Part shown: positions 6,730-34,358 of the stretch, piece by piece
How positions within the stretch are numbered: position 1 is the stretch's first letter
Layout of the letters: each line of letters starts with the position of its first letter
Origin: Nocardioides panzhihuensis
GTDB taxonomy: Bacteria; Actinomycetota; Actinomycetes; Propionibacteriales; Nocardioidaceae
Assembly: GCF_013408335.1 (NCBI RefSeq)
Contig: NZ_JACBZR010000001.1
Span: 4,131,501-4,195,500 of the forward strand
DNA length: 64,000 nucleotides
Direction of reading: 5' to 3'
Notes under the pieces: generated by a model
Told to the model about the DNA's origin: nothing
What the model saw: only the letters and a program-made list of their open reading frames with translations
Database searches by the model: none
Program-made: the position numbers and the translations under genes

Positions 6730-12050
<5,321 letters not shown>

Positions 12051-12054
<4 letters not shown>

Positions 12055-17279: not shown

Positions 17280-17404
17280 GCGGAGCGAGCCTATGGTGCG
17301 ACCTCGGCCCGACCGCGCGGTTTCCGACGAAAGCGCCCATGTTCCGTGACCACCTCGACACGGCAGCGCTCCATGCCGAGCGACTAACTGGCGGGCTGTT
17401 TCTG

Positions 17405-17483
17405 CTCCCCGGGTAGGAGTCGAACCTACGTCGCTAGTCCTGATTCAAAGTCAGGCGGGCCCTGCCGGCAGACCAACCGGGGA
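17405..17483 (-). tRNA. tRNA-Gln (anticodon TTG)
   Basis: On the minus strand a 79-base cloverleaf can be drawn. The acceptor stem is TCCCCGG/CCGGGGA and the D arm GGTC/GGCC. The anticodon stem CCTGA/TCAGG encloses the loop CTTTGAA, giving anticodon TTG (Gln). The T arm GTAGG-TTCGACT-CCTAC is canonical. The variable region is about nine bases, longer than the usual four or five. A CCA end is not clearly encoded. Genes for tRNA are common integration sites, but no integrase is seen nearby. Confidence 0.8.
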
Positions 17484-18579: not shown

Positions 18580-19149
18580 ATGGCAGACGAGACCAACGCC
18601 CCCGACCTCGAGGTGAACGCGGCCACCGTGTCCGACGGCGCCTACACCCTCCTCATCGCAGACTTCAGCGACACGGGCACCGCCTGGGAGGCGTACGAGG
18701 CTCTCAAGTCGGTCGAGGACGGCCACAGCGTCGAGATCGAGGGCGTCGTCGTGGTCAAGCGCTCGGCCGAGGGGAAGCTGGAGGTCCAGAAGGCCACCGA
18801 CCACAGCACGAAGTCGGGCCTCAAGTGGGGCCTCGTCGGCGGCATCGCGCTCGGCGTGATCTTCCCGCCGTCGATCCTGGGCAGTGCCGCGGTGGCCGGC
18901 GGCGCCGGAGCCATCGTCGGCAAGCTGCGGCAGCGTCACCACCGCGGCGAGCTCGAGGAGCAGCTCGAGAACGCGATCGAGCCAGGACACTCCGGCCTGC
19001 TCGCGCTGGTCTCCGACCCCGGTGAGATCAAGATCCGCAAGGCGCTCGAGCGGGCGGAGAACATCGTCGAGTCCACCGTCGAGAAGGTCGAGGCCGAAGA
19101 CATCAAGGCCGCGGCCAAGGAAGCCCAGGCGACCGACGCCACTGGATGA
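18580..19149 (+). CDS. DUF1269-family protein
   Basis: A 189-residue protein with the DUF1269 pattern. An alpha/beta N-terminal domain (LLIADFSDTGTAWEAYEALK...EIEGVVVVKRSAEGKLEVQ) is followed by a glycine/alanine-rich hydrophobic hairpin (WGLVGGIALGVIFPPSILGS, about residues 84-112). A helical C-terminal domain with charged residues follows. Function is unknown; the family is membrane-associated and often stress-linked. The ATG has an AAGGAG site eight bases upstream. Its stop lies immediately before a DNA-ligase remnant, so the C-terminus may sit next to a rearrangement junction. Confidence 0.82.
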   Translation: MADETNAPDLEVNAATVSDGAYTLLIADFSDTGTAWEAYEALKSVEDGHSVEIEGVVVVKRSAEGKLEVQKATDHSTKSGLKWGLVGGIALGVIFPPSILGSAAVAGGAGAIVGKLRQRHHRGELEEQLENAIEPGHSGLLALVSDPGEIKIRKALERAENIVESTVEKVEAEDIKAAAKEAQATDATG

Positions 19150-19195
19150 GGCAGCGGCCGGCTATGCGTTCGAGCCCAAGTGGGACGGGTTCAGG
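19142..19195 (+). pseudogene. ATP-dependent DNA ligase fragment (motif I only)
   Basis: This short frame reads LDEAAAGYAFEPKWDGFR, which contains the ligase motif I with the AMP-accepting lysine (EPKWDG). Ligase similarity stops abruptly at 19195, where the thiolase gene of the minus strand begins to be read. The last 24 bases are identical to positions 32571-32594 inside the intact ligase gene, including the unusual codons GGG and AGG. Upstream residues differ from the intact gene, so it is either a second ligase paralogue or a diverged copy. It is far too short to be functional. Confidence 0.72.
19172..19195. repeat. 24-bp direct repeat, left copy
   Basis: Exact copy of 32571-32594, encoding EPKWDGFR. 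Flanking bases differ on both sides. It marks the left edge of the catabolic island and supplies the stop codon and last base pair of the thiolase gene. Confidence 0.85.
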
Positions 19196-20336
19196 CCGAC
19201 TCGATGATGGTGGCGGTCGCGATTCCGCCGCCGCCGCACATCGTGGAGAGCCCGATGCCCCCGCCGGCGGCGCGCAGAGCGTGGGCGAGGTGGAGCAGCT
19301 GCCGGGCTCCGGTGGCGCCGAACGGGTGGCCGATGCTGATGGCGCCGCCGCCGAGGTTGACGCGGTCGAGGCTCACCCCGAAGTGCTCCTGCCAGATCAG
19401 GACCGGGACCGCGTAGGCCTCGTGGACGTCGATGAGCTTCATCTGGTCGAGGGTCAGCCCGGTGCGGTCGAGGATCTTGGCGGTCGCGTCGTTGGGACCG
19501 TCGAAGATGATGTCGGGGTCGTTACCCACGAAGGTGGTCGACCGGATCCAGGCCAGCGGGGTCAGGCCGAAGCGGGCGCAGGCCTCCTCGGATGCCAGGA
19601 TCATCGCGGCGCTGCCGTCGGAGAGCTGGCTGGAGTTGGCAGCGTTGTTCACACCGTCAGGCCGGTAGACCGATGGCAGCTTCCCCGCCTTCTCGACACT
19701 GGAGTCCGGCCTGATGCCCTCGTCGCGGTTCAGCAGGACGGTGCCGTCGACCGTGACGGGCACGGTCTCGTCGTCGAACGCCCCGCGTTCCCACGCCGCG
19801 TGCGCGGCGAGGTGCGAACGGACGCCGTACTCGTCGCACGCTTCCCGCGTGATGCCGTACTTGTCCGCGGCACGCTCCGCGGCCTCGCCCTGGTGCGGCA
19901 TGTCCCAGTGCGCGTGCAGGCTCTGCGAGATCGGGCCGTCTTCACCCACCGTTCCCGCGATGCCGGTGGGCACCCGGGTCAGCGACTCCACGCCTCCCGT
20001 GATGACGACCGATGCGTCCCCGGCCATGATCGAGGCGACGCCGAGGTGGGTGGCCAGCTGGCTCGAAGGGCACTGCGCGTCGAGCGTTGAGATGGGCACA
20101 GTCATCGGCAGGCCGGACGACAGCCAGGCGTTGCGGCCGATGTTCTGCGCCTGCCCACCTACTTGGCCGGTGGCACCAGCGAGGCCCATGTCGACGTTCG
20201 CAGGATCGATCCCAGCCGCAGCAAGGGCGCCGTCGAACGACGTCGCGAGCAGGTCGACGGGGTGGACGTCGCGGTAGGCCTTGTCCTTCTTCGCGATGGG
20301 GGTGCGGACACCGGAGACGATGGCAACGCGGGTCAT
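19191..20336 (-). CDS. Thiolase-family protein (acetyl-CoA acyltransferase type)
   Basis: A 381-residue thiolase. The nucleophilic Cys is C89 in DAQCPSSQL, replacing the usual RxCxSG context. The second region is VHEAYAV, where NEAFA is usual. The catalytic His is in GGAISIGHPFGATGARQL and the second Cys in TMCGGGGIAT. The likely reaction is thiolytic cleavage of a 3-ketoacyl-CoA, or Claisen condensation. The ATG at 20336 matches the family N-terminus MTRVAIVSGVRTPIAK. The stop TGA and part of the last codon lie in the 24-bp ligase-derived repeat, so the native end was probably altered by recombination. A terminator hairpin separates it from the dipeptidase gene. Confidence 0.9.
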   Translation of the reverse strand: MTRVAIVSGVRTPIAKKDKAYRDVHPVDLLATSFDGALAAAGIDPANVDMGLAGATGQVGGQAQNIGRNAWLSSGLPMTVPISTLDAQCPSSQLATHLGVASIMAGDASVVITGGVESLTRVPTGIAGTVGEDGPISQSLHAHWDMPHQGEAAERAADKYGITREACDEYGVRSHLAAHAAWERGAFDDETVPVTVDGTVLLNRDEGIRPDSSVEKAGKLPSVYRPDGVNNAANSSQLSDGSAAMILASEEACARFGLTPLAWIRSTTFVGNDPDIIFDGPNDATAKILDRTGLTLDQMKLIDVHEAYAVPVLIWQEHFGVSLDRVNLGGGAISIGHPFGATGARQLLHLAHALRAAGGGIGLSTMCGGGGIATATIIESA

Positions 20337-20424
20337 GAGGTTTCCAATCTGTTGGGATGGCTGCACGGAGGCAGCAGGACATGCGGACGCACACCGGTCG
20401 GCGGTGCCGCCCTTGCTCAGGGGG

Positions 20425-20466
20425 GACCGCGCGCAACGGGCATGGGGGTTCCCGTCGCGCGCGGTC
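20425..20466 (-). terminator. Hairpin terminator after the dipeptidase gene
   Basis: Arms of 16 bp (20425-20440 and 20451-20466, GACCGCGCGCAACGGG against its near-perfect complement with one mismatch) enclose a 10-base loop. It lies just past the stop of the M19 dipeptidase gene on the minus strand. This implies that the thiolase gene has its own promoter in 20337-20424. Confidence 0.7.
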
Positions 20467-20469
20467 GTC

Positions 20470-21480
20470 TCAGGACCAGACCTGGCCGTAGACCCGCAGC
20501 CAGTTCTCACCGAGGACGCCGCGGACCTCGTCGGCGGTGTAGCCGCGCTCGAGCATCCGCTCCGCGAGCTTGGGAAAGCCGCTCGGGCCGCCCTGGCCGA
20601 GGCCGTCGGGGAAGTTGAACGGCGGAGGCGGGTAGGTCTCCCGACGCCAGACCTGGGACTTGATGAGGCCCTCGTACTGCTCCATGGTCAGCGTCGCGTC
20701 ATCGTCGACCTGGGTGCCACGGCAGTAGTCGATGCCGAGGCCCACGTGGCCGGTGCCGACCAGGCTGTCCACGTGGACCATGTGGTCGATGAACTGGTCG
20801 AGCGTGGGAGCGGTGTCGGCCGCGACGAAGAACGGCAGGCCGTTCATCCCGATGACTCCCCCGCTGGCGGCGATGGCCTTGATGACGTCGTCCGGGATGT
20901 TGCGCGTGCTCGGGTGCACCGCGTGGGCGTTCGAGTGCGAGGCGATGACCGGTGCGGTCGACGCTTCGATGACCTCGAGCGCAGAGCGCCATCCGGTGTG
21001 GCTGACGTCGACCAGGATGCCGAGGCGGTTCAGTTCGGCAAGCATCTGCTCGCCGAGCTTGCTGAGCCCGGCGTCCTGCGGCTCCTCGCATCCGTCGCAC
21101 ATGATGCCGCGCCGGTTGTAGGCGACCTGCACGATCCGCAGGCCCATCCGCCAGTACGCCTCGATCAGCGAAGGCTCGTACTCGAGGGGTCGTGTGCCCT
21201 GGAAGTGGAACACCACCGCCATCTCACCGGCGGCCTTGGCCGCCCGGATCTCCTCCACGGAGGTCGCCAGCCGTAGGCCTGGGGTGTTGCGGATGAACTC
21301 GAAGCACCTGCCGAAGGCGGACAGCGCCTCCCTGGCAGCGCCGAGCGCCGAGACCGTGAGCACGCAGACGGTCGTGCCGCCCTTGCGCCAGTGGTCCAGG
21401 TGGGTGCGCCAGTAGTCGAACTCGCAGGCCGAGTCGATGACGACTGCGTCCTCGAAGACGAACGGGTTGATCTCAGTCAT
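20470..21480 (-). CDS. Membrane-dipeptidase-like protein (M19), atypical metal site
   Basis: A 336-residue member of the M19 (renal dipeptidase) family, predicted to cleave dipeptides or related amides. Conserved parts include H161 in LVDVSHTG, H182 in IASHSNAHAVHPSTRN and D251 in LGIDYCRG. The family's first zinc ligands HxD are absent (VIDSACEFD at residues 14-22). The bridging Glu is Gln94 (FHFQGTRPL). It may therefore bind one metal or use a different chemistry. No signal peptide is seen, so it is cytoplasmic. It lies downstream of a peptide ABC transporter and probably processes its imported substrate. Confidence 0.82.
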   Translation of the reverse strand: MTEINPFVFEDAVVIDSACEFDYWRTHLDHWRKGGTTVCVLTVSALGAAREALSAFGRCFEFIRNTPGLRLATSVEEIRAAKAAGEMAVVFHFQGTRPLEYEPSLIEAYWRMGLRIVQVAYNRRGIMCDGCEEPQDAGLSKLGEQMLAELNRLGILVDVSHTGWRSALEVIEASTAPVIASHSNAHAVHPSTRNIPDDVIKAIAASGGVIGMNGLPFFVAADTAPTLDQFIDHMVHVDSLVGTGHVGLGIDYCRGTQVDDDATLTMEQYEGLIKSQVWRRETYPPPPFNFPDGLGQGGPSGFPKLAERMLERGYTADEVRGVLGENWLRVYGQVWS

Positions 21481-21510
21481 GTGTTTGCCGCCTGTCTCTC
21501 ATGTTGGCCG

Positions 21511-23079
21511 TCAGCTGGTGCGGGTGATGTCGAGCGGCCACGGCGCGTTCCACCACGGCTGGGTGTAGTTCGCCCACTCGAACCCTGAGGCGATGCCCAG
21601 GTTGGCCTGGAGCGCCATGATCGGGATGTAGGGGACATCGGTGGCCAGTTGCGTGAGGAGCTCGGTGTAGGCCTCGAACTGCGCCTCCGGAGTATCAGCT
21701 TCGGAAGCCTTCTGGATGATGCTGTCCACCTTCTCGGGGCCGTAGCCGGCGAGGTTGCTGCCGCCCTCGACCAGGCCATCCGAGCCGAGCCAGTACGACG
21801 GCATGTAGCCCGGCGTCGGTGTGCAGCCGGCGCCTGCGGTGTAGACGGTCGGCCGCTTCTCGACTGCTGCTCCCACGTCGGCCACCCACTTCGCGATGGT
21901 CTGGTTCCTGACCGTCAGCTTGATGCCGATCTTGCCCAGCTGGTCGGCGAGGATCTGCGATCCGGTGATGTTGTTGGAGAAGTCGGTGGTCTGCAGATTG
22001 GCTTCGAAGCCGTCAGGGTAGGCCGACTTGGCCAGCTCCGCCTTCGCCTTGTCGAGGTCGTGTGGGTACTGCGGGAGCGAGTCGATCATCGTCTCGGCCT
22101 TCTCCGGCGACGTGATCGTCTCGAGCGACTGCGGCGGGATGAATGTGGTGATCGGGTCGGCGTGACCGTCGACGTCGTCCACGAATGCCGAACGGTCCAC
22201 TGCGTGAGCGACGGCGCGACGCACATGGATGTCGTTCCAGGGTGCCGCCTGCGTGTTGAGGGCAACGAAGCCCATGGAGCAGCTCGGGCTGCTGACGATC
22301 TCTGCCTTGGAGGTCGATTCGAACGACGTCGCGTTCGCGACGCTGGGCACCATGTCGATCGACTTGGCACGTAGGGCGATCGCGGCGTTGGTCTCGGTGT
22401 CGAAGAACTTGACGTCCATCTCGTCGAATTCGACGTCACCGCCCCAGTAGTCGGGGTTGGCCTTGAACTCTGCGCCGCCGGTCGGGTCGAGCTTGACGAT
22501 CTCATAGGGCCCGGTTCCCATCACGAGGGTGCCGGGGTTGCCGAAGTCATCCTCGTGCTCCTCATAGAACTTCTTCTGGATGATCTGGGAGGAGAACATC
22601 GACGCCTGGGTCGCCCAGTTGGAGTCCGGGGTCTTCAGCGTCACGGTCACCGTGTACTTGTCGGTGGCCTCAATGGTGTCGACGGTGCGGTACTTCGCCG
22701 CGGTGTAGGAGTTGGGGTCGCGGTAGCGTTCCAGAGAGAAGACCACGTCATCCGAGGTCAGCTCCTGGCCGTCCCAGAACTCCACTCCCTTCCTGAGGTG
22801 GTAGACGTATACCTTCGGGTCAGGGTTCTCGACCCTCTCCGCTAGGCGGGGCTCCAGACTTCCGTCCGGCTTGAGCCGGACGAGGCTCTCCAGGCTTGGA
22901 CTCACGACGAGGGGAGCCATCTGCGAGTCGACGATGTCGACCGTGCTCGTGCTGCCCACGATGCCGACTCGCAGGGCGCCTCCGTCCTCGGACTCGGATG
23001 GGGCCGCAGAGCTTCCGCAAGCACTGAGGCCCGCCATCGTCATGAGCGCCGCGGCTGCGATCGCACCTTGTCTCCGCAT
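21511..23079 (-). CDS. Peptide/nickel-type ABC transporter substrate-binding lipoprotein
   Basis: A family 5 extracellular solute-binding protein of about 522 residues. It has a lipoprotein signal (RRQGAIAAAALMTMAGLSAC, lipobox LSAC) and typical segments such as LRKGVEFWDGQELTSDDVVF. The ATG at 23079 is preferred because GAGG stands six bases upstream; GTG at 23091 is also in frame. It binds the imported oligopeptide or related solute at the cell surface. It sits downstream of the two permease and fused ATPase genes in the same operon, giving a complete importer. Confidence 0.92.
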   Translation of the reverse strand: MRRQGAIAAAALMTMAGLSACGSSAAPSESEDGGALRVGIVGSTSTVDIVDSQMAPLVVSPSLESLVRLKPDGSLEPRLAERVENPDPKVYVYHLRKGVEFWDGQELTSDDVVFSLERYRDPNSYTAAKYRTVDTIEATDKYTVTVTLKTPDSNWATQASMFSSQIIQKKFYEEHEDDFGNPGTLVMGTGPYEIVKLDPTGGAEFKANPDYWGGDVEFDEMDVKFFDTETNAAIALRAKSIDMVPSVANATSFESTSKAEIVSSPSCSMGFVALNTQAAPWNDIHVRRAVAHAVDRSAFVDDVDGHADPITTFIPPQSLETITSPEKAETMIDSLPQYPHDLDKAKAELAKSAYPDGFEANLQTTDFSNNITGSQILADQLGKIGIKLTVRNQTIAKWVADVGAAVEKRPTVYTAGAGCTPTPGYMPSYWLGSDGLVEGGSNLAGYGPEKVDSIIQKASEADTPEAQFEAYTELLTQLATDVPYIPIMALQANLGIASGFEWANYTQPWWNAPWPLDITRTS

Positions 23080-23206
23080 GAGCATCCTCACTTCATCTGT
23101 CGATTGATCGTTGGGGTCGAACCCATTGCCATGTCGTGCTTTGACGTCTGTCGTTCTCCGAGTCCGACTGCTGCTGGCGTGCCGTACATCCGCCGCGTCC
23201 AGACCA

Positions 23207-25141
23207 CTACGAGGCCCATCCGTCGGATCGAGGCACCGAGTCGATGAGTTTCCGGGTGTAGGCGTCCTTCGGCCGATCCAGTACGTCGCTGGTCTGGCCG
23301 TGCTCGACGACCCGTCCGCGGTGCATGACGTAGATGTAGTCCGAGATCTGCCGGACGATGGCGAGGTCGTGGGTGATGAAGAGAAAGCCGATGCCCTGCT
23401 CCTCGCGGAGCTTCCCGAAGAGGTTGAGGATCTGCGCCTGCACCGACATGTCGAGCGCCGATACCGATTCGTCGCAGATCAGCAGCCGCGGCTGGGTCGC
23501 GAGGGCCCGGCCGATGGCGACGCGCTGCCGCTCCCCACCGGAGAGAGCCACGGGCTTACGTTGGGCGTAGGACGCGGGCAGCCCGACCGTCTCGAGCAGG
23601 TCTGCGGCCCTGGCCGAGACGTCGGTCACCTTCGGATCGTGGGTTCGGATCGCCTCCTGGAGAGTCCAGCCGATGGTGCGCATCGGGTTCAGGCTCGAGT
23701 AGGGGTCCTGGAAGACCATCTGCACGGTGCTCCGGATCCGTCGGGCGTCACGGCGGCTCAGCGTGGACCAGTCGGTGACCGCGATGCCGTCGATCTCGAT
23801 GTCACCACCCGACGCGGTCTCCAGTCCGACGAGCATCCGGGCCAGCGTCGTCTTTCCGCTGCCGGACTCGCCCACGACCCCGACGCTCTGCCCGATCCCG
23901 ATGCCCATGGACACCCCGTCGACGGCACGGACGCCCTGCTTGCCGTTGTCGAACTGCTTGACGACATCGCGGACCTGAATCAGCTGACCGCGGGTGTCAC
24001 CGGAAACCTCGTCGACGCCGACCTCGATCCGCGCGCGGATCTCGGCCATCTCGTCGCGGATCTCCGCGAGCCGCAGGCACCGCGACCATCGCTGGTTGCC
24101 CAGGTCCACCAGCTCGGGCCGCGACTCGGTGCATCGTGCGCTCGCCCACCGGCAGCGTGGCGCGAAGGCGCAGCCACCGGCGACGTCGTCGGCCGCCGGT
24201 ACGGATCCCGGGATGGAGGCCATCTCGCGGAGCCTGCGGTCGGCCGGCGGCTCGGACAACAGCAACCCGTGGCTATAGGGATGCAACGGTTCCTGCTCGA
24301 GGTCGGCCGACGGGGCGACTTCGAGGAGCGAGCCGGCGTAGAGCACGTGGACCCGGTCGCAGGTTCCGAAGGCCAGCCTGAGGTCGTGGGTGATCAACAT
24401 GACACCCATGCCCCGGGAGCGTTGGAGGTCCTTGATCAGCGACAGGATCTCGCGCTGGGTGGTGACATCGAGCGCGGTCGACGGCTCATCGGCGATCAGC
24501 AGCTCGGGGTCGCATGCCAACGCTGCGGCGATGGCCACTCGCTGGCGCATGCCGCCCGAGAGCTGGAAGGGGTAGCGGTCGACCACCGACGGGTCGTGGA
24601 TGCCGACCTCGGCCAGACGCCGGATGGCTTCCTGCCGCTTCTCTCCGCGTGGACGCCGGGCGAGCTTCGGCGGCAACGACTCGACCAGGATGCGCCCCAC
24701 CCGCATCACGGGGTTCAGCATCGTGAAGGGGTCCTGGAGGATCATCCCGATCGCGTTGCCGCGCATCGCCCGCCGCTGGCGGGGCCCCAGGTCCATCAGG
24801 TCCTTGCCGTCGAAGGCGATCGTGCCGCTCGCGTGGAGTCCTTGCGGGAGCAGACCCATGATCGCCTTTGCGGTCACCGACTTCCCGCTGCCGCTCTCTC
24901 CGACGACCGCGACCATCTCACCAGGGGCGATGGACAGGTCGACCCCGGACACCACGGTGGAGGTGCTGGCCGGCGTCCTGTGCACGACCGAGAGGTCGGA
25001 CACCTTCAGAAGCGGCACCGCTGCGGGCCCCGTCAGGAGATCGACTCCGACGGAGGTCTCCCCGCTCTGTTCTTCTGCCGTCTTGGTCATGGTCTCGGTC
25101 ATGGTCTCCGCCGTGGTCCGGGTGCGATCTGTTCGCGTCAT
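23207..25141 (-). CDS. Fused dipeptide-type ABC transporter ATPase (DppD-DppF)
   Basis: A 644-residue protein with two complete nucleotide-binding domains. The first half has Walker A GESGSGKSV, signature LSGGMRQRVAIA and Walker B LLIADEPSTALD. The OppD-type cysteine-rich C-terminal segment is reduced (AFAPRCRWASARCTES). The second half has GESGSGKTT, LSGGERQRVAIG and LLICDESVSALD. It energises import by the permeases at 25138-25995 and 25992-26957. The ATG at 25141 overlaps the upstream permease stop by 4 bp. The serine in DES of the second Walker B is a common variant. Confidence 0.93.
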   Translation of the reverse strand: MTRTDRTRTTAETMTETMTKTAEEQSGETSVGVDLLTGPAAVPLLKVSDLSVVHRTPASTSTVVSGVDLSIAPGEMVAVVGESGSGKSVTAKAIMGLLPQGLHASGTIAFDGKDLMDLGPRQRRAMRGNAIGMILQDPFTMLNPVMRVGRILVESLPPKLARRPRGEKRQEAIRRLAEVGIHDPSVVDRYPFQLSGGMRQRVAIAAALACDPELLIADEPSTALDVTTQREILSLIKDLQRSRGMGVMLITHDLRLAFGTCDRVHVLYAGSLLEVAPSADLEQEPLHPYSHGLLLSEPPADRRLREMASIPGSVPAADDVAGGCAFAPRCRWASARCTESRPELVDLGNQRWSRCLRLAEIRDEMAEIRARIEVGVDEVSGDTRGQLIQVRDVVKQFDNGKQGVRAVDGVSMGIGIGQSVGVVGESGSGKTTLARMLVGLETASGGDIEIDGIAVTDWSTLSRRDARRIRSTVQMVFQDPYSSLNPMRTIGWTLQEAIRTHDPKVTDVSARAADLLETVGLPASYAQRKPVALSGGERQRVAIGRALATQPRLLICDESVSALDMSVQAQILNLFGKLREEQGIGFLFITHDLAIVRQISDYIYVMHRGRVVEHGQTSDVLDRPKDAYTRKLIDSVPRSDGWAS

Positions 25142-25995
25142 CGCGACGCTCCTCTCTCGGAAAGCCGCTCGTAGATCCAGTCGCCGAAGACGTTCATCGA
25201 CGCCGCGGTCATCACGATCATCAGGCCGGGCGCGAGCGCAGCCACCGGGCTGATGAACAGCAGATCCAGGTTCTCGGCGAGCATCAGACCCCAGTCCGGG
25301 GTGCCGGGGTTCACCCCGAGTCCGAGGAACGAGAGCCCGGACAGCGTTACCAGTGCTGTGGCGAAGATGAGGAAAGAGTTCGCCACCGCGACCGGAGCGA
25401 TGTTGGGCCAGATGTGCGAGACGAGGATCCTGATGTTCGACACGCCGAGGGTCTTCGCCGACTCGACGTAGGGGCGAGGCACCTGCTCGAGCGTGGCGCC
25501 GCGGACGACTCGTACATCCATCGGTACGACCAGGACGATCAGGAGGCCGATCGCGAGCCAGTAGCCTCCGCCGAATGCTCCGGCGACGACGATGATGACC
25601 AGCAGCGAGGGGATCGACCACATCAGGTCGACCCAGCGCATGATGAGCGAGTCGACCCATCCCCCGAAGTAGCCCGCGACGAGGCCGAGCAGGTCGCCGA
25701 TGACCAGCGAGCAGGCGGCGATGACAAGTGGGCCGACGAACGCCGTCTGGGCACCGACGATGAGCCGGGAGAAGATGTCACGGCCGAGCTGGTCGGTCCC
25801 CAGCCAGTGCTCGGCACTCGGGCCAGACATTCCCAGAGAGGTCATCTGGGCGTCAGGGGCCTGGGGGGCGATCAGCTCGCCTAGCAGCGCCAGCAGCCCG
25901 ACGACGATGATCACGGTCATGCACAGGATCACGGACCACGAGGCGCGTTGACGGCGCCGTAAGCGGCCCCTGCCGGTGTCCAGTGTGATGCTCAT
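25138..25995 (-). CDS. ABC transporter permease (DppC-like)
   Basis: A 285-residue permease with an N-terminal helix (VILCMTVIIVVGLLALLGEL) and a BPD_transp_1 core of about five further helices. The EAA-type loop reads EQVPRPYVESAKTLGVSNIR. It forms the membrane channel with the DppB-like partner. The start ATG at 25995 overlaps that gene's stop, and its own stop overlaps the ATPase start, so the operon is translationally coupled. Confidence 0.93.
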   Translation of the reverse strand: MSITLDTGRGRLRRRQRASWSVILCMTVIIVVGLLALLGELIAPQAPDAQMTSLGMSGPSAEHWLGTDQLGRDIFSRLIVGAQTAFVGPLVIAACSLVIGDLLGLVAGYFGGWVDSLIMRWVDLMWSIPSLLVIIVVAGAFGGGYWLAIGLLIVLVVPMDVRVVRGATLEQVPRPYVESAKTLGVSNIRILVSHIWPNIAPVAVANSFLIFATALVTLSGLSFLGLGVNPGTPDWGLMLAENLDLLFISPVAALAPGLMIVMTAASMNVFGDWIYERLSERGASR

Positions 25996-26957: not shown

Positions 26958-27297
26958 ATGTGCTCCCTGGAGGTGCAGGTCGTCATGAACGCCGTCGGAT
27001 CTTGGTGGCGGCGTATTCCCACAATTACATGCACTACCAACTATCCGCAAGCCATCAGTTGGTAAATCATGAGATATTTCGGTGCCTCCGACACAGGGCG
27101 GAGCCGTCGACCATCAGGCTCCTTCGGGCGCGACGAACTGCCCGGCGAGTCCTGGAAGGATCTGGATGATTGGCGTCGTCAGGGCGCGTGCCAAGGCGAC
27201 GTGAAGCGCCTAGGACTTCCGGGACGCGCCAGACCGACGCGGGGAGCCGGGCCGGTACTGTGGCCGCGACGTCCGCGCGTCCCACCGAGCCAGCGGC
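26958..27297. other. 340-bp intergenic region with operator
   Basis: Between the transporter operon start and the MarR stop. It contains a less GC-rich segment at about 27015-27075 with the operator-like sequences listed separately. The rest, 27076-27297, shows no supported gene; short frames there lack a ribosome binding site and family similarity. Confidence 0.5.
27024..27064. promoter_or_regulatory. Operator-like site upstream of the transporter operon
   Basis: A perfect 8-bp inverted repeat, TACCAACT and AGTTGGTA, is separated by 14 bases (27035-27042 and 27057-27064). The 21 bases at 27024-27044 match 19 of 21 positions with 31589-31609, which lies at the other regulated promoter of the island. 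The MarR regulator encoded at 27298 is the obvious candidate to bind both, but this is inferred. Confidence 0.6.
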
Positions 27298-27801
27298 TCA
27301 GTCGGAACTGGCGATTCGCTCCTCGACGAGCAGCCGGACCTTTCGCAGCATCCCAGCGAGCTCGTCCAGCGAGTCCTCCGGAACTCCGGCGAGCCCGAAC
27401 TCGCTGTCGTCGAGCGAGGTGGCGACAGCCTCCTGGGCGGCCTCACCCGCAGGAAGCAGGGTGACGACGGTGACGCGCCGGTCGCTGCCCTGCGATCGCC
27501 GGACGAACTTGCTGCGCTCGAGCCGGTCGACGGTGCGGGTGATGGTCGTCGGGTGTGCCGCCACACGCAGTGCCAGCTTGGCAGTTGGCATCTGCTTGGC
27601 CGGATGAAAGCTGAGCGCGGTCAGCGCCTGCCAGCCGGCAAAGGTCAGGTTCTCTGCAGCAAGGGCCGGCTGAGCGGCCACTTGCACCAGGCGGTTGATC
27701 CGCTCCACCTCGAGGGATACGGCGAGCTGACGGTGGGAATGGGCACCACGACGCTCGAACTCCTGTTGCGTGACCTCGATGAGGTCGCGATCCAAGTCCA
27801 C
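27298..27801 (-). CDS. MarR-family transcription regulator
   Basis: A 167-residue winged-helix regulator. The DNA-recognition region reads LALRVAAHPTTITRTVDRLE and the wing includes RSQGSDRRVTVVTLLPAG, both typical of MarR. It probably represses the island and is relieved by an aromatic or acyl ligand, as is common in the family. The gene begins 25 bases after the serine hydrolase stop and is transcribed in the same direction. It may thus belong to the hydrolase-ligase-DUF2817 operon and control itself together with the transporter. Confidence 0.92.
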   Translation of the reverse strand: MDLDRDLIEVTQQEFERRGAHSHRQLAVSLEVERINRLVQVAAQPALAAENLTFAGWQALTALSFHPAKQMPTAKLALRVAAHPTTITRTVDRLERSKFVRRSQGSDRRVTVVTLLPAGEAAQEAVATSLDDSEFGLAGVPEDSLDELAGMLRKVRLLVEERIASSD

Positions 27802-27826
27802 TACGGCAGCCTATCGTTCTGGGATC

Positions 27827-28870
27827 TCAGCGCGGGCAGTACGGGAGGAGGTCGTCCATGTAGACGAGGTCGATCGGCTTGCCGTGGGCAACCGCCACGT
27901 GCTCGGGGAACGCGCCGAGCAGGTTGGTGAGCACGATCAGCGTCAGCCCGTCGGGATACCGGGCGATCTGGGCCTTTCCACCACCGCCCGGCGCCGGGAC
28001 CAGCCCTTGAGGTCGCTCGAAGACCAGCCAGCCGATCCCCCACAAGCCGGGGCTGCCGTCGTACGTGGGGACCGGGGTCCACAGCGTGTCGCGACTCGCC
28101 GGGGAGAGCAGCGCACCGCTCTCGAGGGCCGACATCCAGGCGGCCAGGTCGTCGGCGGTGCTATGGAGTCCCGCGGCGGTACGGAGCACGTGCGGCCAGT
28201 CCAGGCGGCTCCTGTCGATGCGCCCCGTGGGCTCACCCGAGGCATCGATGCTCATGTACGTGTCTGCCCTGTGGGGAATGAGGTCGTGGTCGTTGGCGTA
28301 GCGCGTGTGGGTCATCCCGGCGATGTCGAACTGGCGCTCGGCGATGAAGTCGACGAACGGCTTGCCACTGAGCCGGTCGATGACCTTACCGAGCAGGGCG
28401 TAGTTGGTCTGTACATAGTTGTAGCCTCGGCCGGGCTCGAACTCCATCGGCGCGGCGTGCACGACAGCCCAGGCGGCCTCCTCGTCCGCAGCGACCAGCC
28501 CGACCGAGCTGTCCGCGCCGTAGGCCATGATCTCCGGGAGCCCGGAGGTGAGGGTGGCGAGCTGTCGGATCGTGATCGGCTGCCAGGCCTCGGGCAGCGC
28601 GTCGAGGTAGCGCGAGACCGGGGCATCGAGGTCGAGGTCGCCGGACTCGACCAGCTGCATCAGGGCGATCCCGGTGAACGCCTTGGCCATGGAGTTGATG
28701 GAGAACACCGACTCCCGGGTCACCGCCACGTCGTGCTCGAGGTTGGCCACGCCGAGTGTCTCCGAAGCCACGATCTCGCCGTGATGCAGCACCACGGCCT
28801 GCAGCCCGGGCACGTGGCGCTCCTCCATCAGCCGAGCGAGCTGCTCGCGCAGTGCGTGTGTCGTGCTCAT
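27827..28870 (-). CDS. Serine hydrolase, class C beta-lactamase/esterase family
   Basis: A 347-residue serine hydrolase of the beta-lactamase-like (EstB/family VIII) group. The SxxK motif is S60-M-A-K63 in INSMAKAFTG and a YxN-like motif lies in YNYVQTNYALLG. The late KTG/HxG region is replaced by APGGGGKAQ. No signal peptide is visible, so it should act in the cytoplasm. Possible activities are esterase, amidase or D-aminopeptidase; true beta-lactamase action is less likely. Its ATG overlaps the acyl-CoA ligase stop by 4 bp. Confidence 0.85.
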   Translation of the reverse strand: MSTTHALREQLARLMEERHVPGLQAVVLHHGEIVASETLGVANLEHDVAVTRESVFSINSMAKAFTGIALMQLVESGDLDLDAPVSRYLDALPEAWQPITIRQLATLTSGLPEIMAYGADSSVGLVAADEEAAWAVVHAAPMEFEPGRGYNYVQTNYALLGKVIDRLSGKPFVDFIAERQFDIAGMTHTRYANDHDLIPHRADTYMSIDASGEPTGRIDRSRLDWPHVLRTAAGLHSTADDLAAWMSALESGALLSPASRDTLWTPVPTYDGSPGLWGIGWLVFERPQGLVPAPGGGGKAQIARYPDGLTLIVLTNLLGAFPEHVAVAHGKPIDLVYMDDLLPYCPR

Positions 28871-30453
28871 CGGGGTCCTCCGGTCGTAGTGGCTTGCGCC
28901 TGCTCGATGAACGCGCGTCTGAGCGCCTTCTTGTCACGCTTCCCGACCTGGGTCAGCGGGATGCTCTCGACGATGTCGATGCGCTTCGGAGTCTGTACGG
29001 AGCCCTTGCGCGCGCGTACGTGTGCCTTGAGGTCGTCGACCGTGACACCAGGATCGCGCACCTCGACCGCGGCGACGAGGATCTCGCCCCAGTAGTCGTC
29101 CGGGACACCGAAGACCGACGCAGCAGCCACAGCGGGGTGCTCCTCGAGTGCATCCTCGACACTGCGGGGGTAGACGTTGAAACCGCCGGTGATGACGAGA
29201 TCCTTGGCGCGGTCAACGATGCGCAGGAAGCCGTCCGGGTCTCGTACGGCGACGTCACCGGTGTGCACCCAACCGCCGCGCATCGCTTGAGCCGTGTCCT
29301 CAGGCAGGTTGAGATAGCCGCTCATCAGGAGGGGGCCGCGGACACACAGCTCGCCCGGCTGCCCGTCGGGGACCTCGACGTCGTCGTGGTCGACGAGGCG
29401 CACCTCGGCCTCGGCCACAGGCCGCCCGCAGGAGGCCATGCGGGCGTCGGAGGTGACGTCATGCTCCTCGCGCCGCATCACGCATACGGTGGTCGGCGCC
29501 TCGGCCTGGCCGTAGAACTGGAAGAAGATCGGCCCGAACCGGGCGATGGCGTCCCTGAGCCGCTGGGGGGAGATGGGCGAGGCGCCGTAGAACACGGTGG
29601 CGAGGCTGGAGGTGTCGTGCTTGCTCAGGTGCGGGTGGTCCAGGATTGCGCTGATCATCGTCGGCACGAGCAGCGCACACGTGATGCGATGCCGTTCGAC
29701 CGCAGCCAGGAACTCGCCCGCGTCGAAGTTCTGCTGGACGTAGAGGGTGCCGCCTTGGGCGATCGTCGGCACGAAGTTGACTCCGCCCGCATGGCTGAGC
29801 GGCGCGACCAGCAGGTTGCGGATCTCGTCGGGCCACTGCCAGTCCGCGAGCTGGATGCCATACATCGTCGACATGCTGCGGAAGCTGACCTGGCTCGCCT
29901 TCGGCACCCCGGTGGTGCCGCCGGTGTAGACGATGCGGCAGATCGCCTCGAGGTCGCTGGGACGCGGCTCGAGCACGGTCGCGGTCTCGGCCGCCATGAG
30001 CACCCGCAGGTCGTCGGCTCCCCCGCCCCCGATCCTCAGGACCTGCGCGCTGCTGCCCGCGATCTCGACCGCCTCGGTGATCTCGTCGATCCGCGCGCCG
30101 TCCACGACCACATGGGTCGCCGCGGCGTCGTCGAGGATGTGCGCGAAGTCGGCGGGGCTGCCCAAAGGGTGCAACGGCACGAAGACGCCGCCCAGCGCGG
30201 CAACGGCCTGCTGGACGAAGAGCACCTCGATGCGGTTGCCGGAGAGCAGCGCGACCCGGTCGCCTGACCGGAGACCGAGCCCGTCCAGAACTGCCGCGCA
30301 CCGCGCGATCGCGACCTCGAGCTGTGCCCCGGTCCAGGTCGTGCCGTCGGACTCGACGACGAGCGTCTTGCCCGAGTGCGTACGTAGCGCACGGACAAGC
30401 AGATCGTTGAGGTGCTCGAAGCGTCGGTCGGTAACCACTGGGTTCGTCACCAC
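28867..30453 (-). CDS. AMP-dependent acyl-CoA synthetase/ligase
   Basis: A 528-residue adenylate-forming enzyme. The P-loop-like motif is YTGGTTGVPKASQ, the aromatic/adenine motif QFYGQAEAPT, the ATP-binding aspartate motif HTGDVAVRDPDGFLRIVDR, and the C-terminal hinge and lysine region ITGGFNVYPRSVEDAL. It activates a carboxylic acid to its CoA ester. In the island it probably activates the acid released by the hydrolases before chain cleavage by the thiolase. Start GTG 30453 lies inside the end of the DUF2817 gene, so the two are coupled. Confidence 0.9.
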   Translation of the reverse strand: MVTNPVVTDRRFEHLNDLLVRALRTHSGKTLVVESDGTTWTGAQLEVAIARCAAVLDGLGLRSGDRVALLSGNRIEVLFVQQAVAALGGVFVPLHPLGSPADFAHILDDAAATHVVVDGARIDEITEAVEIAGSSAQVLRIGGGGADDLRVLMAAETATVLEPRPSDLEAICRIVYTGGTTGVPKASQVSFRSMSTMYGIQLADWQWPDEIRNLLVAPLSHAGGVNFVPTIAQGGTLYVQQNFDAGEFLAAVERHRITCALLVPTMISAILDHPHLSKHDTSSLATVFYGASPISPQRLRDAIARFGPIFFQFYGQAEAPTTVCVMRREEHDVTSDARMASCGRPVAEAEVRLVDHDDVEVPDGQPGELCVRGPLLMSGYLNLPEDTAQAMRGGWVHTGDVAVRDPDGFLRIVDRAKDLVITGGFNVYPRSVEDALEEHPAVAAASVFGVPDDYWGEILVAAVEVRDPGVTVDDLKAHVRARKGSVQTPKRIDIVESIPLTQVGKRDKKALRRAFIEQAQATTTGGPR

Positions 30454-31553
30454 TGGGTCAGCCCTTCAAGCATGCGCATCTGAGCGTCGATCCCATTCTT
30501 CATGGCTGCCGCGCGCCAAGCCGGCGAAGCCGGGTTGAGCCCTTCCATCATCAGGTCCAGCATCTCCTCGCGCGAGGTGTAGGTCTGTCCGGTGGCGTAC
30601 TTCAACCACCGGTCGATGCGCACGGTGTTGAGCACGGTCAGGTTGTCGTAGGTGCCGACCTCGATCAGGAGTCCGGCCCACTCCGCCCACGGCGCGGTGC
30701 TGGGCAGCCAGGCGGAGAAGAATCCGGTGTAGGACGGCGTGTGCCCCTCCGACATCCGGGCAGAGGAGGAGAAGCTCGTGCGCGCCGACTCCCCTAGCCA
30801 GTCGACCACCCGCTCATGCCCGGGCGAGCCGGCCGGAAGGCTGCAGATGTGCGCGAGCTCGCCCCACTCGCCGATGCCGGTGTGCCACTCGATGAAGGCG
30901 ATCTTCTCGGCGTTGGCCAGCACATGTGGCAGGAGCTCGGCGACGACCGTGTGCGACCAGGCCGGGCGGTCCCCGACGTAGGTGATGCCCGTCGGCTCTA
31001 CAGCCTGTCCGCCCGAGAGGGCAGTGATCATCTGCTGCGGCCCATGGGCACGCACCATCTCGTCGAGGACACCGCTCCAGTCGCTCGTCTCCTCCGTCCA
31101 GCCCTCAGGGCACAGCGTCGGAAACAGCTCGCGATAGAGCTCGTTGCGAGGAAACGGGTCCTCGTGGTCGAGGAAGTTGCGATTGAGGTCGATGTTGTCC
31201 TCGTCGGTGCGCGAGTGGTGCGAGAAGCCCCACGGATTCAGCGCATGCAGCGCCACGATGTTGACCCCATCGGGAATCTCGAGTTCGCGGAGCAGCTCGA
31301 GCTGGAGGGCCGAGCCGAGGAAGCCCTCCTGACCATGCGTCCCCGAGACGACGAGAAAGCTCTTGGCCGCCTCGGGATCACCGAACGTGGCCACGTCGAT
31401 GGCCAGCTCCTCACCGTCAGCACCGCGCTCGGTCGGATGTGGCACTGACTCGAGCTGCGCGCCCCGCTCAGCCACCAAGTCGAGGAACCGGCGACGCGCC
31501 TCGGCATACGTATCGCTGAACGCTTCGCTCACAGCCACCTCCGATTTCGCCAC
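30447..31553 (-). CDS. DUF2817 / M14-like metallohydrolase
   Basis: A protein of 361-368 residues in the M14-like DUF2817 group (related to carboxypeptidases and succinylglutamate desuccinylase/aspartoacylase). Zinc ligands are suggested by SGTHGQEGFLGS (HxxE), and the substrate region by DLNRNF. A later histidine lies in FIEWHTGIGEW, and the catalytic Glu is likely in LLIEVGTYDN. It should hydrolyse an amide or peptide bond at a carboxyl terminus. GTG 31553 is the longest start, but GTG 31532 (VSEAFSDTYAEARR) has a CGGAGG site five bases upstream and may be the true one. First gene of its operon. Confidence 0.82.
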   Translation of the reverse strand: MAKSEVAVSEAFSDTYAEARRRFLDLVAERGAQLESVPHPTERGADGEELAIDVATFGDPEAAKSFLVVSGTHGQEGFLGSALQLELLRELEIPDGVNIVALHALNPWGFSHHSRTDEDNIDLNRNFLDHEDPFPRNELYRELFPTLCPEGWTEETSDWSGVLDEMVRAHGPQQMITALSGGQAVEPTGITYVGDRPAWSHTVVAELLPHVLANAEKIAFIEWHTGIGEWGELAHICSLPAGSPGHERVVDWLGESARTSFSSSARMSEGHTPSYTGFFSAWLPSTAPWAEWAGLLIEVGTYDNLTVLNTVRIDRWLKYATGQTYTSREEMLDLMMEGLNPASPAWRAAAMKNGIDAQMRMLEGLTQW

Positions 31554-31588
31554 GGCGTCGATCGTCTCATCGATTTCATGGATCGATG

Positions 31589-31618
31589 ATTACATGCATT
31601 ACCATCTATTGGCAATGC
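31589..31618. promoter_or_regulatory. Operator-like site between DUF2817 and SDR genes
   Basis: Positions 31589-31609 match the upstream transporter site at 27024-27044 in 19 of 21 bases. An inverted repeat, GCATTACCA and TGGCAATGC (one mismatch), lies at 31596-31604 and 31610-31618 with a 5-base centre. It is in the divergent promoter gap serving both the metallohydrolase operon and the SDR. Confidence 0.6.
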
Positions 31619-31671
31619 GTCTTTCTTGGGTATTGAACCACCCACCGCTCACATACAGACCAGGAGAACAG

Positions 31672-32421
31672 ATGGACATCCACGGCACCTCCGCAATCGT
31701 CACCGGCGCAGCGTCGGGGCTGGGAGCAGCGACCGCTCGCGCACTGGCCGACGCCGGCGCACACGTCGTCGCGCTGGACCTCGCCTTCGACGGCGTCGAG
31801 CCGGTCTCCGGCGTGACCCACGTCTCGACCGACGTCACAGACCCGATCCAGGTACGGCGCGCGGTGGCCGAGGCCGCCACCGCCGCGCCGCTACGGATCG
31901 CGGTGAACTGCGCCGGGATCGGCCCCTCGGCCCGCATTGTCGGGCGTGCCGGAGTCCACGACTTCGACCTCTTCGCGAAGGTCGTGTCGGTCAACCTGGT
32001 CGGCACCTTCACGGTGCTGGCGCTGGCGGCCGAGGAGATGGCGCGCAGCACCGAGCTCGAGCATGGCCAGCGCGGCGTCGTGATCAACACCGCCTCGATC
32101 GCCGCCTACGATGGCCAGGTCGGGCAGACCGCGTACGCCTCCTCGAAGGGCGGCGTGGTCTCGATGACCCTCCCGGCAGCCAGGGACCTCGCCCGGCACG
32201 GCATCCGCGTCAACACCATCGCACCCGGCATCGTCGAGACCCCGATGCTCGCCACCGTGAGCGAGGAATATCGCGCCGGGCTCGCGGAAGGCGTGCCCTT
32301 CCCGCAGCGCTTGGCCAGGCCCGAGGAGTTCGCTCTGCTGGTGACCCAGCTCATCGCGCACGACTATATCAACGGCGAGGTCGTCCGGATGGATGGTGCC
32401 CTCCGGATGGCGCCCCGCTGA
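31672..32421 (+). CDS. SDR-family 3-hydroxyacyl-CoA dehydrogenase-like protein
   Basis: A 249-residue short-chain dehydrogenase. The cofactor loop is TGAASGLG, an acidic residue in LDLAFDG favours NAD, catalytic Ser lies in NTASIAAYDG and YASSK gives the YxxxK pair. The pattern is that of type 2 3-hydroxyacyl-CoA dehydrogenases (HSD17B10-like). It would oxidise a 3-hydroxyacyl-CoA to the 3-keto form for the thiolase at the far end of the island. The ATG has AGGAGA upstream. It is divergent from the metallohydrolase operon. Confidence 0.9.
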   Translation: MDIHGTSAIVTGAASGLGAATARALADAGAHVVALDLAFDGVEPVSGVTHVSTDVTDPIQVRRAVAEAATAAPLRIAVNCAGIGPSARIVGRAGVHDFDLFAKVVSVNLVGTFTVLALAAEEMARSTELEHGQRGVVINTASIAAYDGQVGQTAYASSKGGVVSMTLPAARDLARHGIRVNTIAPGIVETPMLATVSEEYRAGLAEGVPFPQRLARPEEFALLVTQLIAHDYINGEVVRMDGALRMAPR

Positions 32422-32477
32422 CTCGTCCGAAACCTCGGTCGCCCACGTAGCGCACATCGATCCCCTACGGTTGGCAT

Positions 32478-33599
32478 GTGGACCTTCCAGTGATGCCGCC
32501 GATCCTGCCGATGCTGGCCAAGCCGGCATCGCTCGAGAAGGTGCTTTCGATGGCGCCCAACGTCCAACTGGAGCCCAAGTGGGACGGGTTCAGGTGCATC
32601 GTGTTCAAGGACGGCGACGAGGTGGAGCTGGCCTCGCGCAATACCAAACCGCTGACTCGCTACTTCCCCGAGGTGGTCGAGGCGCTTCGCGAGGTGCTGC
32701 CGGAGAAGATCGTGCTCGACGGAGAGATCTTCGTGGCGGTCGGCGACCGGCTGGAGTTCGAGGTTCTGCAGCAGCGGATCCACCCGGCCGAGTCGCGGAT
32801 CAACCTGCTGGCGGAGGAGACGCCCGCTGCGTACGCGGCCTTCGATCTGCTCGCGCTGGGCGACAGGTCGTTCCTCGACGAACCGCTGTCGGAGCGGCGG
32901 GCCGCGCTCGAGGACGTCTTCGCGGGTCTCGACGAGCTCGACCACCGGAAGCGAAGCGTGCATCTGTGCACGACGACGACCGACCCCGAGGTCGCCCAGG
33001 ACTGGTTCACCCGGTTCGAGGGCGCCGGGCTGGACGGGGTGATGGCCAAGCCGCTGGACGCCCCCTACGTCCCCGACAAGCGGACGATGCTGAAGATCAA
33101 GCACTCGCGTACGGCTGACGTGGTCGTAGCGGGCTATCGCGAGCACAAGACCTCGACGCCGGAGAACCCGTTGCTCGGGAGCCTGCTGCTGGGTCTGTAC
33201 GCACCCGGGGAGGACGGCCGGCCGGAGCTGCAGCACATCGGGGTCTCAGCCTCGTTCACCGCCGCGCGACGCGCCGAGCTGTGGCAGGAGCTCCAGGAGC
33301 TGGTCGTTCCGATCGAGGAGCACCCGTGGGGACGCTGGAGCGAGTGGCTGACCGCCAACCCCGACCGCGTCCCCGGCACCCAGAGCCGCTGGTCACAGGG
33401 GAAGGACTTGTCCTTCACCCCGCTGCGTCCCGAGCGGGTCGTCGAGGTCGGCTACGACCACATGGAGGGACGCCGGTTCCGGCACACTGCCCAGTTCAAG
33501 CGCTGGCGTCCCGACCGCGAGCCGGAGTCGTGCGGGTACGACCAGCTCGAGGAACCCGTGGCGTACGAGCTGGCGGAAGTGCTCGGAGTGCCCCGCTGA
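32478..33599 (+). CDS. ligC: ATP-dependent DNA ligase, LigC type
   Basis: A 373-residue ATP-dependent DNA ligase. The N-terminus VMPPILPMLAKPAS matches the LigC family. Motif I with the adenylated lysine is EPKWDGFR. Motif III lies in AYAAFDLLAL, motif IV in GLDGVMAKPL and motif V in MLKIKHSRT. The OB-fold domain fills the C-terminal third. It seals nicks in excision or end-joining repair. The GTG at 32478 agrees with the family N-terminus. A LigD-type polymerase lies 1.9 kb away on the other strand. Positions 32571-32594 are the right-hand copy of the 24-bp repeat. Confidence 0.93.
   Translation: MDLPVMPPILPMLAKPASLEKVLSMAPNVQLEPKWDGFRCIVFKDGDEVELASRNTKPLTRYFPEVVEALREVLPEKIVLDGEIFVAVGDRLEFEVLQQRIHPAESRINLLAEETPAAYAAFDLLALGDRSFLDEPLSERRAALEDVFAGLDELDHRKRSVHLCTTTTDPEVAQDWFTRFEGAGLDGVMAKPLDAPYVPDKRTMLKIKHSRTADVVVAGYREHKTSTPENPLLGSLLLGLYAPGEDGRPELQHIGVSASFTAARRAELWQELQELVVPIEEHPWGRWSEWLTANPDRVPGTQSRWSQGKDLSFTPLRPERVVEVGYDHMEGRRFRHTAQFKRWRPDREPESCGYDQLEEPVAYELAEVLGVPR
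32571..32594. repeat. 24-bp direct repeat, right copy
   Basis: Exact copy of 19172-19195, here inside the intact ligase gene at motif I. The 13.4 kb between the copies holds the catabolic island. Confidence 0.85.
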
Positions 33600-34274: not shown

Positions 34275-34358
34275 GTCCGCTGTTCTGGGGGGATCCAGCG
34301 GACAAGAAGTGCCTGCTCGTGCGATCGGGGGATCCGCGCTGAGCAGGCACTTCTGTCA
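34275..34358 (+). ncRNA. Candidate two-hairpin small RNA with G/C-run loops (6C-like)
   Basis: Two adjacent perfect stem-loops fill the gap between the conserved protein gene and the polymerase gene. Hairpin one has arms GTCCGCTG and CAGCGGAC (34275-34282, 34296-34303). Hairpin two has 14-bp arms starting AGAAGTGCC (34305-34318, 34341-34354). Each loop holds a run of six or five G next to GATC. On the minus strand these are C runs, like the actinobacterial 6C RNA, which has two hairpins with C-rich loops. A -10-like TAGGAT favours plus-strand transcription; 6C resemblance favours minus. Hairpin two could also terminate the convergent polymerase gene. Confidence 0.45.

What the first reader, a model, noticed from the sequence alone, without database searches (positions are those of the whole stretch)
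19142..32594. A 13.4-kb catabolic island lies between two exact 24-bp pieces of a DNA ligase gene
Positions 19172-19195 and 32571-32594 are identical and both encode EPKWDGFR of ligase motif I, including the codons GGG and AGG that are uncommon in this GC-rich context. The right copy is in an intact ligC. The left copy belongs to a fragment that stops at once, where the thiolase gene begins. The thiolase stop codon lies inside the ligase-derived bases. This fits insertion, or recombination between two ligase paralogues, using motif I as crossover point. Chance agreement of eight codons is unlikely given rare codons.
Basis: partly seen in the sequence, partly recalled or inferred. Interest (0 to 1): 0.72.

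Follow-up and report, generated by a model that had tools for sequence, protein, structure and literature searches.

The report
Mobile-element scar inside a DNA ligase
In Nocardioides soil bacteria, a family of mobile DNA elements inserts at the catalytic-site codons of a DNA-repair ligase gene and supplies a substitute front end so that the gene stays whole, and the gene island found here sits at what looks like a worn-out copy of such an insertion.

Summary
The 24-bp repeat is real (19172-19195 = 32571-32594) and unique to these two places in the genome. It is better explained by a mobile element than by two ligase paralogues. In 6 of 215 Nocardioides genomes a large serine integrase starts about 45 bp from a ligC 5' fragment cut inside EPKWDG. 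The far end of each element (about 8.8-32.8 kb) carries its own ligC start and first 35 codons, joined in frame to the host's remaining ligC. Two elements are each shared by two species at 99.97-99.98% identity. Inferred attP sites are palindromic about TGGG|ACG (7 of 7; 5 distinct), so one attP arm is also ligase coding sequence.

The window's right ligC has this element-type front end: same protein as two integrase-bearing elements, 10 synonymous and 0 nonsynonymous differences. The left copy is 36 bp of native-type ligC. No integrase or relaxase was found in the window. I read it as a decayed attR with a rebuilt left edge around 13.4 kb of catabolic genes; how the left edge formed, and whether the genes were cargo, is unresolved. 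The 24-bp identity alone is weak evidence (24 of 136 native ligC pairs also match over it); only the shared AGG codon is unusual.

The parts
17404..17483 (-). tRNA-Gln(ttg), conserved upstream neighbour of ligC
   Evidence: ARAGORN; tRNA-Gln near ligC in sister genomes
18580..19149 (+). DUF1269 gene; its 3' end abuts the ligC remnant and replaces the start of native ligC
   Evidence: PF06897; sequence
19160..19195 (+). remnant of native-type ligC (GYAFEPKWDGFR), spanning the insertion point without an attP arm
   Evidence: 36 bp at 97% to native ligC of G011
19172..19195 (+). left copy of the 24-bp direct repeat
19191..20510 (-). thiolase; stop codon inside the left repeat; matches thiolases to their C-terminal end
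   Evidence: PF00108/PF02803
20470..21480 (-). M19 membrane dipeptidase family
   Evidence: PF01244
21511..23091 (-). family 5 solute-binding protein
   Evidence: PF00496
23207..25660 (-). ORF with two ABC ATPase domains, oligopeptide type
   Evidence: PF00005, PF08352
25138..26415 (-). ABC permease (domain in the C-terminal part of the ORF)
   Evidence: PF00528
25992..27050 (-). ABC permease
   Evidence: PF00528/PF19300
27298..27801 (-). MarR-type regulator
   Evidence: PF01047
27827..28870 (-). serine hydrolase of the beta-lactamase/esterase fold (far below the curated beta-lactamase cut-offs)
   Evidence: PF00144
28867..30453 (-). acyl-CoA ligase (AMP-binding)
   Evidence: PF00501/PF13193
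30447..31553 (-). DUF2817, zinc-peptidase/deacylase-like
   Evidence: PF10994; 1 of 391 order genomes (own)
31672..32421 (+). short-chain dehydrogenase next to ligC
   Evidence: PF00106/PF13561
32478..32583 (+). element-type 5' end of ligC (VDLPVMPPILPMLAKPASLEKVLSMAPNVQL-EPKW) up to the inferred crossover: attR-like
   Evidence: same protein as elements in G001 and G209
32571..32594 (+). right copy of the 24-bp repeat; inferred crossover TGGG|ACG at 32583/32584
32478..33599 (+). intact chimeric ligC (ATP-dependent DNA ligase)
   Evidence: PF01068/PF04679; NF006078 511 bits, cut-off 296
34356..35441 (-). LigD-type primase-polymerase (Prim-Pol) gene near ligC
   Evidence: PF21686

Best explanation
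ligC motif I is the attB of a Nocardioides family of integrative mobilizable elements with a large serine integrase. The integrase recombines attP with attB inside the codons EPKWDG (centre TGGG|ACG, so the exchanged dinucleotide is probably GA of the Asp codon). The host's native ligC 5' end is left behind as a stub beside the integrase. The other end of the element brings its own promoter region, start codon and first 35 ligC codons, which fuse in frame to the rest of the host ligC. One attP arm is therefore read both by the integrase and by the ribosome. The window is a decayed case: the right ligC is the product of such an insertion (attR), integrase and relaxase are gone, and the left end was rebuilt so that a 36-bp piece of native-type ligC now abuts a catabolic gene cluster. 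Shown by comparison: the element family, its ends, the in-frame restoration and the element-type 5' end in the window. Inferred: the recombination chemistry, the function of the chimeric ligase, and the route by which the left edge and the 13.4-kb cluster arose (deletion of the integrase end plus a short gene conversion or templated repair between the two ligC copies is my preferred route).
For: Integrase homologues (E<=1e-60) in 6 of 215 genus genomes, and in 6 of 6 the integrase gene starts next to a ligC 5' fragment cut at GAGCCSAAGTGGGACG (42-44 bp from the centre in the sequences I counted). attL pattern in 7 of 215, reversed-pattern control 0. Element-type ligC 5' ends in 11 of 215 (6, 5), 10 of them in intact ligC genes. 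Each of the six integrase genomes has one intact chimeric ligC at the other end. Mosaic break at the crossover: G001/G209 196 of 196 bases identical before, 188 of 200 after; G016/G149 196 of 196, then 173 of 200. Whole elements 99.979% over 32,653 bp and 99.965% over 8,665 bp. attP symmetry peaks at the same centre in 7 of 7 inferred sites, 5 distinct. TrwC relaxase in all six integrase-bearing elements. pN below pS in 28 of 28 pairs of 8 distinct element-type 5' ends; window versus G001 10 synonymous, 0 nonsynonymous. Empty-site relatives G011, G015.
Against: The left copy is not an ordinary attL: it continues as ligC across the crossover, has no attP arm (TGTACGT) and lacks the first part of ligC. 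No integrase in G000 at E<=1e-60; none of the integrase or TrwC queries hits the 64-kb window at 1e-5. DNA upstream of the right ligC is not like that of G001 (33 of 90). attB symmetry at the same centre is weak (best or tied-best centre in 3 of 7). GC of the island equals its surroundings. No other genome was seen with this cluster at ligC, so the history rests on one case.
Confidence: 0.8

Rival explanations
1. Recombination between two host ligase paralogues at motif I.
For: Two different ligC 5' ends flank the island and agree over 24 bp. Two LigC-like proteins on one contig of N. conyzicola (P0134, P0136) show that paralogues can exist in the genus.
Against: The right 5' end type recurs at the ends of integrase-bearing elements. 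The one other own-genome ligase motif I that I could read is EVKWDGIR. G011 and G015 have a single ligC at this place.
Confidence: 0.06
2. The catabolic cluster was never cargo of the ligC element: an old element was lost, leaving a chimeric ligC, and the cluster arrived later next to it (for example on DNA from a relative, by homologous recombination on the ligC side and an illegitimate join in native ligC on the left).
For: No mobility gene found between the repeats. Left copy is native-type across the crossover. The rest of the cluster has no strong DNA match in 214 other genus genomes, only the dehydrogenase does.
Against: It needs an independent second insertion within a few bases of the first. 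Both copies share the AGG codon seen in no other ligC in hand, which suggests that the two copies have exchanged sequence in this strain.
Confidence: 0.3
3. The 24-bp block is the core of a second, tyrosine-type integrase that also uses ligC motif I; the window holds its attL and attR.
For: A 24-bp perfect direct repeat is more typical of tyrosine integrases than of serine integrases (recalled). In G127 a decayed element-type ligC 5' end lies about 20 bp from the end of a tyrosine integrase gene, with a TrwC relaxase 71% identical to that of G149 nearby.
Against: That G127 copy is not in ligC, and its genome has an intact native ligC elsewhere. No tyrosine integrase hit in the window. One case only.
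Confidence: 0.1
4. The match is only codon constraint on a conserved motif, with no shared history between the two copies.
For: 24 of 136 native ligC pairs are identical over the 24 bp.
Against: The left copy has 12 further native ligC bases and sits in ligC's conserved place beside tRNA-Gln; AGG in both.
Confidence: 0.03

Closest known systems
Serine-integrase integrative (mobilizable or conjugative) elements inserting inside genes such as rumA, hsdM, mutT, traG in streptococci (PMC5704250, PMC4701971; passages read)
   Same: One large serine integrase at one end, site-specific insertion inside a conserved protein gene, a few identical bases at the crossover, mobilization genes.
   Different: Those papers state that the insertions disrupt the target gene (all 29 streptococcal serine-integrase ICEs). 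Here the element carries a substitute 5' end and the gene is made whole again; the host is an actinobacterium.
SXT/R391 ICEs in the 5' end of prfC (PMC4344509, passages)
   Same: Insertion in the 5' end of a housekeeping gene; that the element supplies a new 5' end is recalled, not read here.
   Different: Unrelated integrase type (SXT int is a tyrosine recombinase, recalled), different gene, and no insertion in catalytic-motif codons.
Genomic islands that reconstitute their target gene (general statement in PMC12884075, passages)
   Same: Gene function preserved by an element-borne gene part.
   Different: The passages seen do not name ligC or this design; the integrase family had no match in the phage and plasmid collections at 1e-20.
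LigC/Prim-PolC excision-repair pair (PMC5663958, abstract and outline)
   Same: The target gene is ligC (PRK08224) and a Prim-Pol gene lies close by.
   Different: That work is on mycobacteria; whether the chimeric Nocardioides LigC is active is untested.

Membership tests
ligC-targeting serine-integrase IME family (defined here) | element-type 5' end on the intact ligC | tested here: met
   Same 31-residue leader as G001 and G209; 0 nonsynonymous, 10 synonymous differences
ligC-targeting serine-integrase IME family (defined here) | native ligC stub at the other end, cut at TGGG|ACG and followed by an attP arm | tested here: not met
   Native stub present but only 36 bp, and it runs past the crossover; attL pattern absent from G000
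ligC-targeting serine-integrase IME family (defined here) | large serine integrase beside the stub | tested here: not met
   No hit in G000 at 1e-60, none in the window at 1e-5
ligC-targeting serine-integrase IME family (defined here) | TrwC-type relaxase inside the element | tested here: not met
   Two TrwC queries, no hit in the window; Pfam of the ORFs tested
Large serine recombinases (for the G001 integrase) | Resolvase domain followed by Recombinase domain, about 500 aa | tested here: met
   PF00239 and PF07508 (on a 490-aa part); 536 aa in full
Large serine recombinases (for the G001 integrase) | catalytic activity on attP x attB | not testable with these tools
   bench assay needed
Integrative and mobilizable element (G001, G149, G166, G084 and their near-copies) | own integrase plus relaxase, no complete conjugation machinery | tested here: inconclusive
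   Integrase and TrwC relaxase found; not every ORF was scanned for conjugation genes
LigC (PRK08224) | score above the NCBIfam cut-off over the full length | tested here: met
   511.2 bits against cut-off 296, residues 1-370

The most novel reading that the evidence does not exclude
The element family has a dual-coding attP: one half-site (TACGTACAA[C/A]TAGARCC) is under selection both as integrase-binding DNA and as the ligase codons YVQ[L/I]EP, so host repair ligases in part of the genus now run with an element-designed N-terminal segment. This keeps the target gene alive (and would punish deletions that lose the element's ligC end), and may retune the LigC/Prim-PolC repair enzyme.
Probability: 0.4. 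Interest if true: 0.75.

Novelty: new variant of a known kind. Interest (0 to 1): 0.6.

Why it matters
Serine integrases are generally described as breaking the genes they enter. Here a family of them crosses over in the nucleotidyl-lysine motif (KWDG) of a DNA-repair ligase and rebuilds the enzyme with an element-encoded N-terminus. It gives a ready attB in a conserved gene of Nocardioides, a natural set of chimeric ligases, and a marker (VQ[L/I]EPKWDGFR) for past insertions when the integrase is gone, as in this window. It also shows how a catabolic cluster can end up bounded by two ligase fragments.

Tried and rejected
Paralogue recombination was tested through the genome's ligase genes and sister loci and set aside. 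A phage or plasmid source of the integrase: no match in either collection at 1e-20, and no viral contig with the attP-left pattern. Wider host range: at order level 2 of 391 sampled genomes match, both in the same genus, one of them only a 158-residue piece not shown to be at ligC; genome contigs gave two loci, the same contigs as G016 and G149 by length. Composition did not mark the island. The source of the catabolic cluster was not found: in 215 genus genomes only the dehydrogenase gene matched at 1e-100 (37 genomes, own included; the tool scored 2 candidates per genome), and DUF2817 was found only in the own genome among 391. A test of att-site decay gave mixed results: the TAGA of the attP-left arm is kept in 6 of 6 integrase-bearing elements and lost in the window and G054, but kept in G127, G158 and G195, where no integrase was found. 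A first Pfam scan of the dehydrogenase used a wrong frame, as did the NCBIfam scan; one search used the right one.
Full report
Observation. The repeat is exact, 24 bp, and occurs twice in the genome. The left copy is part of a 36-bp stretch of native-type ligC (19160-19195) whose start is replaced by the end of a DUF1269 gene and whose continuation is replaced by the end of a thiolase gene; the thiolase stop codon lies in it. The right copy is in an intact ligC. Identity over these 24 bases is not rare between ligC genes of different species (24 of 136 pairs of 17 native genes; contexts counted only where EPKWDGFR is followed by a TGY codon). The AGG codon is the unusual point: it stands in both window copies and in none of the other 26 contexts.

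Empty site. In sister genomes G011 and G015 the tRNA-Gln and an uninterrupted ligC are about 0.7 and 1.2 kb apart, and the genes downstream of ligC are collinear with the window. Their ligC reads VDLPVMPPILPMLAKPVKGVPTDGGYAF-EPKWDGFR. The window's left piece has GYAF-EPKWDGFR; its right ligC reads VDLPVMPPILPMLAKPASLEKVLSMAPNVQL-EPKWDGFR.

The element family. In G001 ligC is cut at the same motif: a 5' stub, then about 32.8 kb, then an intact ligC with the same leader as the window's right copy. The 32.8 kb begin with a large serine recombinase whose gene starts 44 bp from the break, and hold copper-resistance genes and a TrwC relaxase. Homologues of the integrase at E<=1e-60 occur in 6 of 215 genus genomes and 6 of 6 lie beside a ligC stub cut at the same place (in G084 the integrase is split into two frames). 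A pattern for stub plus attP arm finds 7 of 215, the seventh being G054, whose integrase is missing apart from its first codons. The element-type 5' end (VQL or VQI before EPKWDGF) is in 11 of 215: G000 (window), G001, G054, G084, G127, G209, G016, G149, G158, G166, G195; in G127 it is a decayed orphan outside ligC. Sizes from crossover to crossover, by my arithmetic on the coordinates: 32.8 (G001, G209), 14.3 (G084), 11.2 (G166), 8.8 (G016, G149) and 9.6 kb (G054). The TrwC relaxase is found in all six integrase-bearing elements (Pfam for four of them). The genus is Nocardioides by the titles of two records.

Mobility. The G001 and G209 elements are 99.979% identical over 32,653 bp, and the G016 and G149 elements 99.965% over 8,665 bp, although the genomes stand for different species. 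Identity stops at the crossover: 196 of 196 bases before it, then 188 of 200 and 173 of 200. This is the signature of insertion with replacement of the ligC 5' end.

Attachment sites. Joining attR-left to attL-right gives seven attP sites (five distinct). Among 25 even centres within 12 bases, two-fold symmetry is highest at TGGG|ACG in 7 of 7 (15-17 of 30 positions), and no odd centre tested reaches this. The arms are of the form TACGTACAA.TAGA and ..TTGTACGTA, so the left arm is read as YVQ[L/I]EP in ligC. The inferred attB is only weakly symmetric there (best or tied-best centre in 3 of 7). The exchanged dinucleotide GA is inferred from the centre, not shown.

Function of the rebuilt gene. 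Eight distinct element-type 5' ends all have 31 residues before EPKW, no stop, and pN below pS in 28 of 28 pairs; window against G001 is 10 synonymous and 0 nonsynonymous changes. The orphan in G127, outside ligC, has lost conserved residues (VDFP, PILAK). In public proteins 39 of the 120 listed LigC hits (of 7841; the query is itself element-type, so the sample is biased) end in VQ[LIVM] before EPKWDGFR, and 87 integrase relatives pass 1e-60 among 8000 scored candidates, three of the named ones being Nocardioides sp. NPDC057772, N. ultimimeridianus and N. humi. The next-but-one gene to ligC in the window is a Prim-Pol gene, as in the LigC/Prim-PolC repair pair of mycobacteria (PMC5663958, abstract and outline only).

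The window as a decayed case. Its right ligC fits attR. Its left copy does not fit an attL: it is native-type across the crossover and has no attP arm. The thiolase matches solved thiolases up to its C-terminus, so its own end (GCC TGA) could account for the left AGG; if so, the right AGG would come from the left copy by a short gene conversion, which would also explain why the right copy has lost the A-rich element codons (CTA GAA CCA AAA in G001; CTG GAG CCC AAG here). This is inference. No integrase, tyrosine integrase of the G127 type or TrwC relaxase is found in the window. The cluster between the repeats (thiolase, M19 dipeptidase, oligopeptide-type ABC transporter, MarR regulator, beta-lactamase-fold hydrolase, acyl-CoA ligase, DUF2817, dehydrogenase) looks like uptake and breakdown of an amide or peptide-like substrate, but the substrate is a guess. 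Whether it was cargo or came later is open (rival 2).

Literature. Passages of two papers on serine-integrase ICEs and IMEs say that their insertions disrupt genes (PMC5704250; PMC4701971); one paper says that many islands, integrase type not stated, reconstitute their target (PMC12884075, passages). My searches (open-licence papers only) listed no paper on insertion into ligC; one search returned none at all. For most listed papers I saw only titles and abstract openings. The passages seen of PMC10083194 mention ligase only as a reagent.

Noticed in passing
L102:8290-16541 (G127 C16): A relative of the ligC element (TrwC relaxase 71% identical to that of G149, decayed element-type ligC 5' end) stands beside a tyrosine integrase, outside ligC: a possible integrase swap. 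Its ligC-like piece also ends right after EPKWDGFR, as the window's left copy does.
   Followed up: partly
window 7256-9464, within ORF 6730-12054: Coding repeat with a 276-bp period (92 residues) in a large ORF; the C-terminal part of the ORF has an 82% identical relative in G011.
   Followed up: no
L038:16661-16716 (G001 C1:1154660-1154715): A second, 56-bp partial copy of the tRNA-Gln region 4 kb from the full one (86% to the window), probably a tRNA-targeted island next to the ligC element.
   Followed up: no
L120 (G015 C22:301278-301751): Partial relative (60%, residues 100-257) of the ligC integrase in a genome whose ligC is uninterrupted.
   Followed up: no
   Followed up: no
L097:13113-14378 (G084 element): Fic-domain protein matching the PADLOC candidate PDC-S04 (1.7e-49): possible defence-type cargo.
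   Followed up: no
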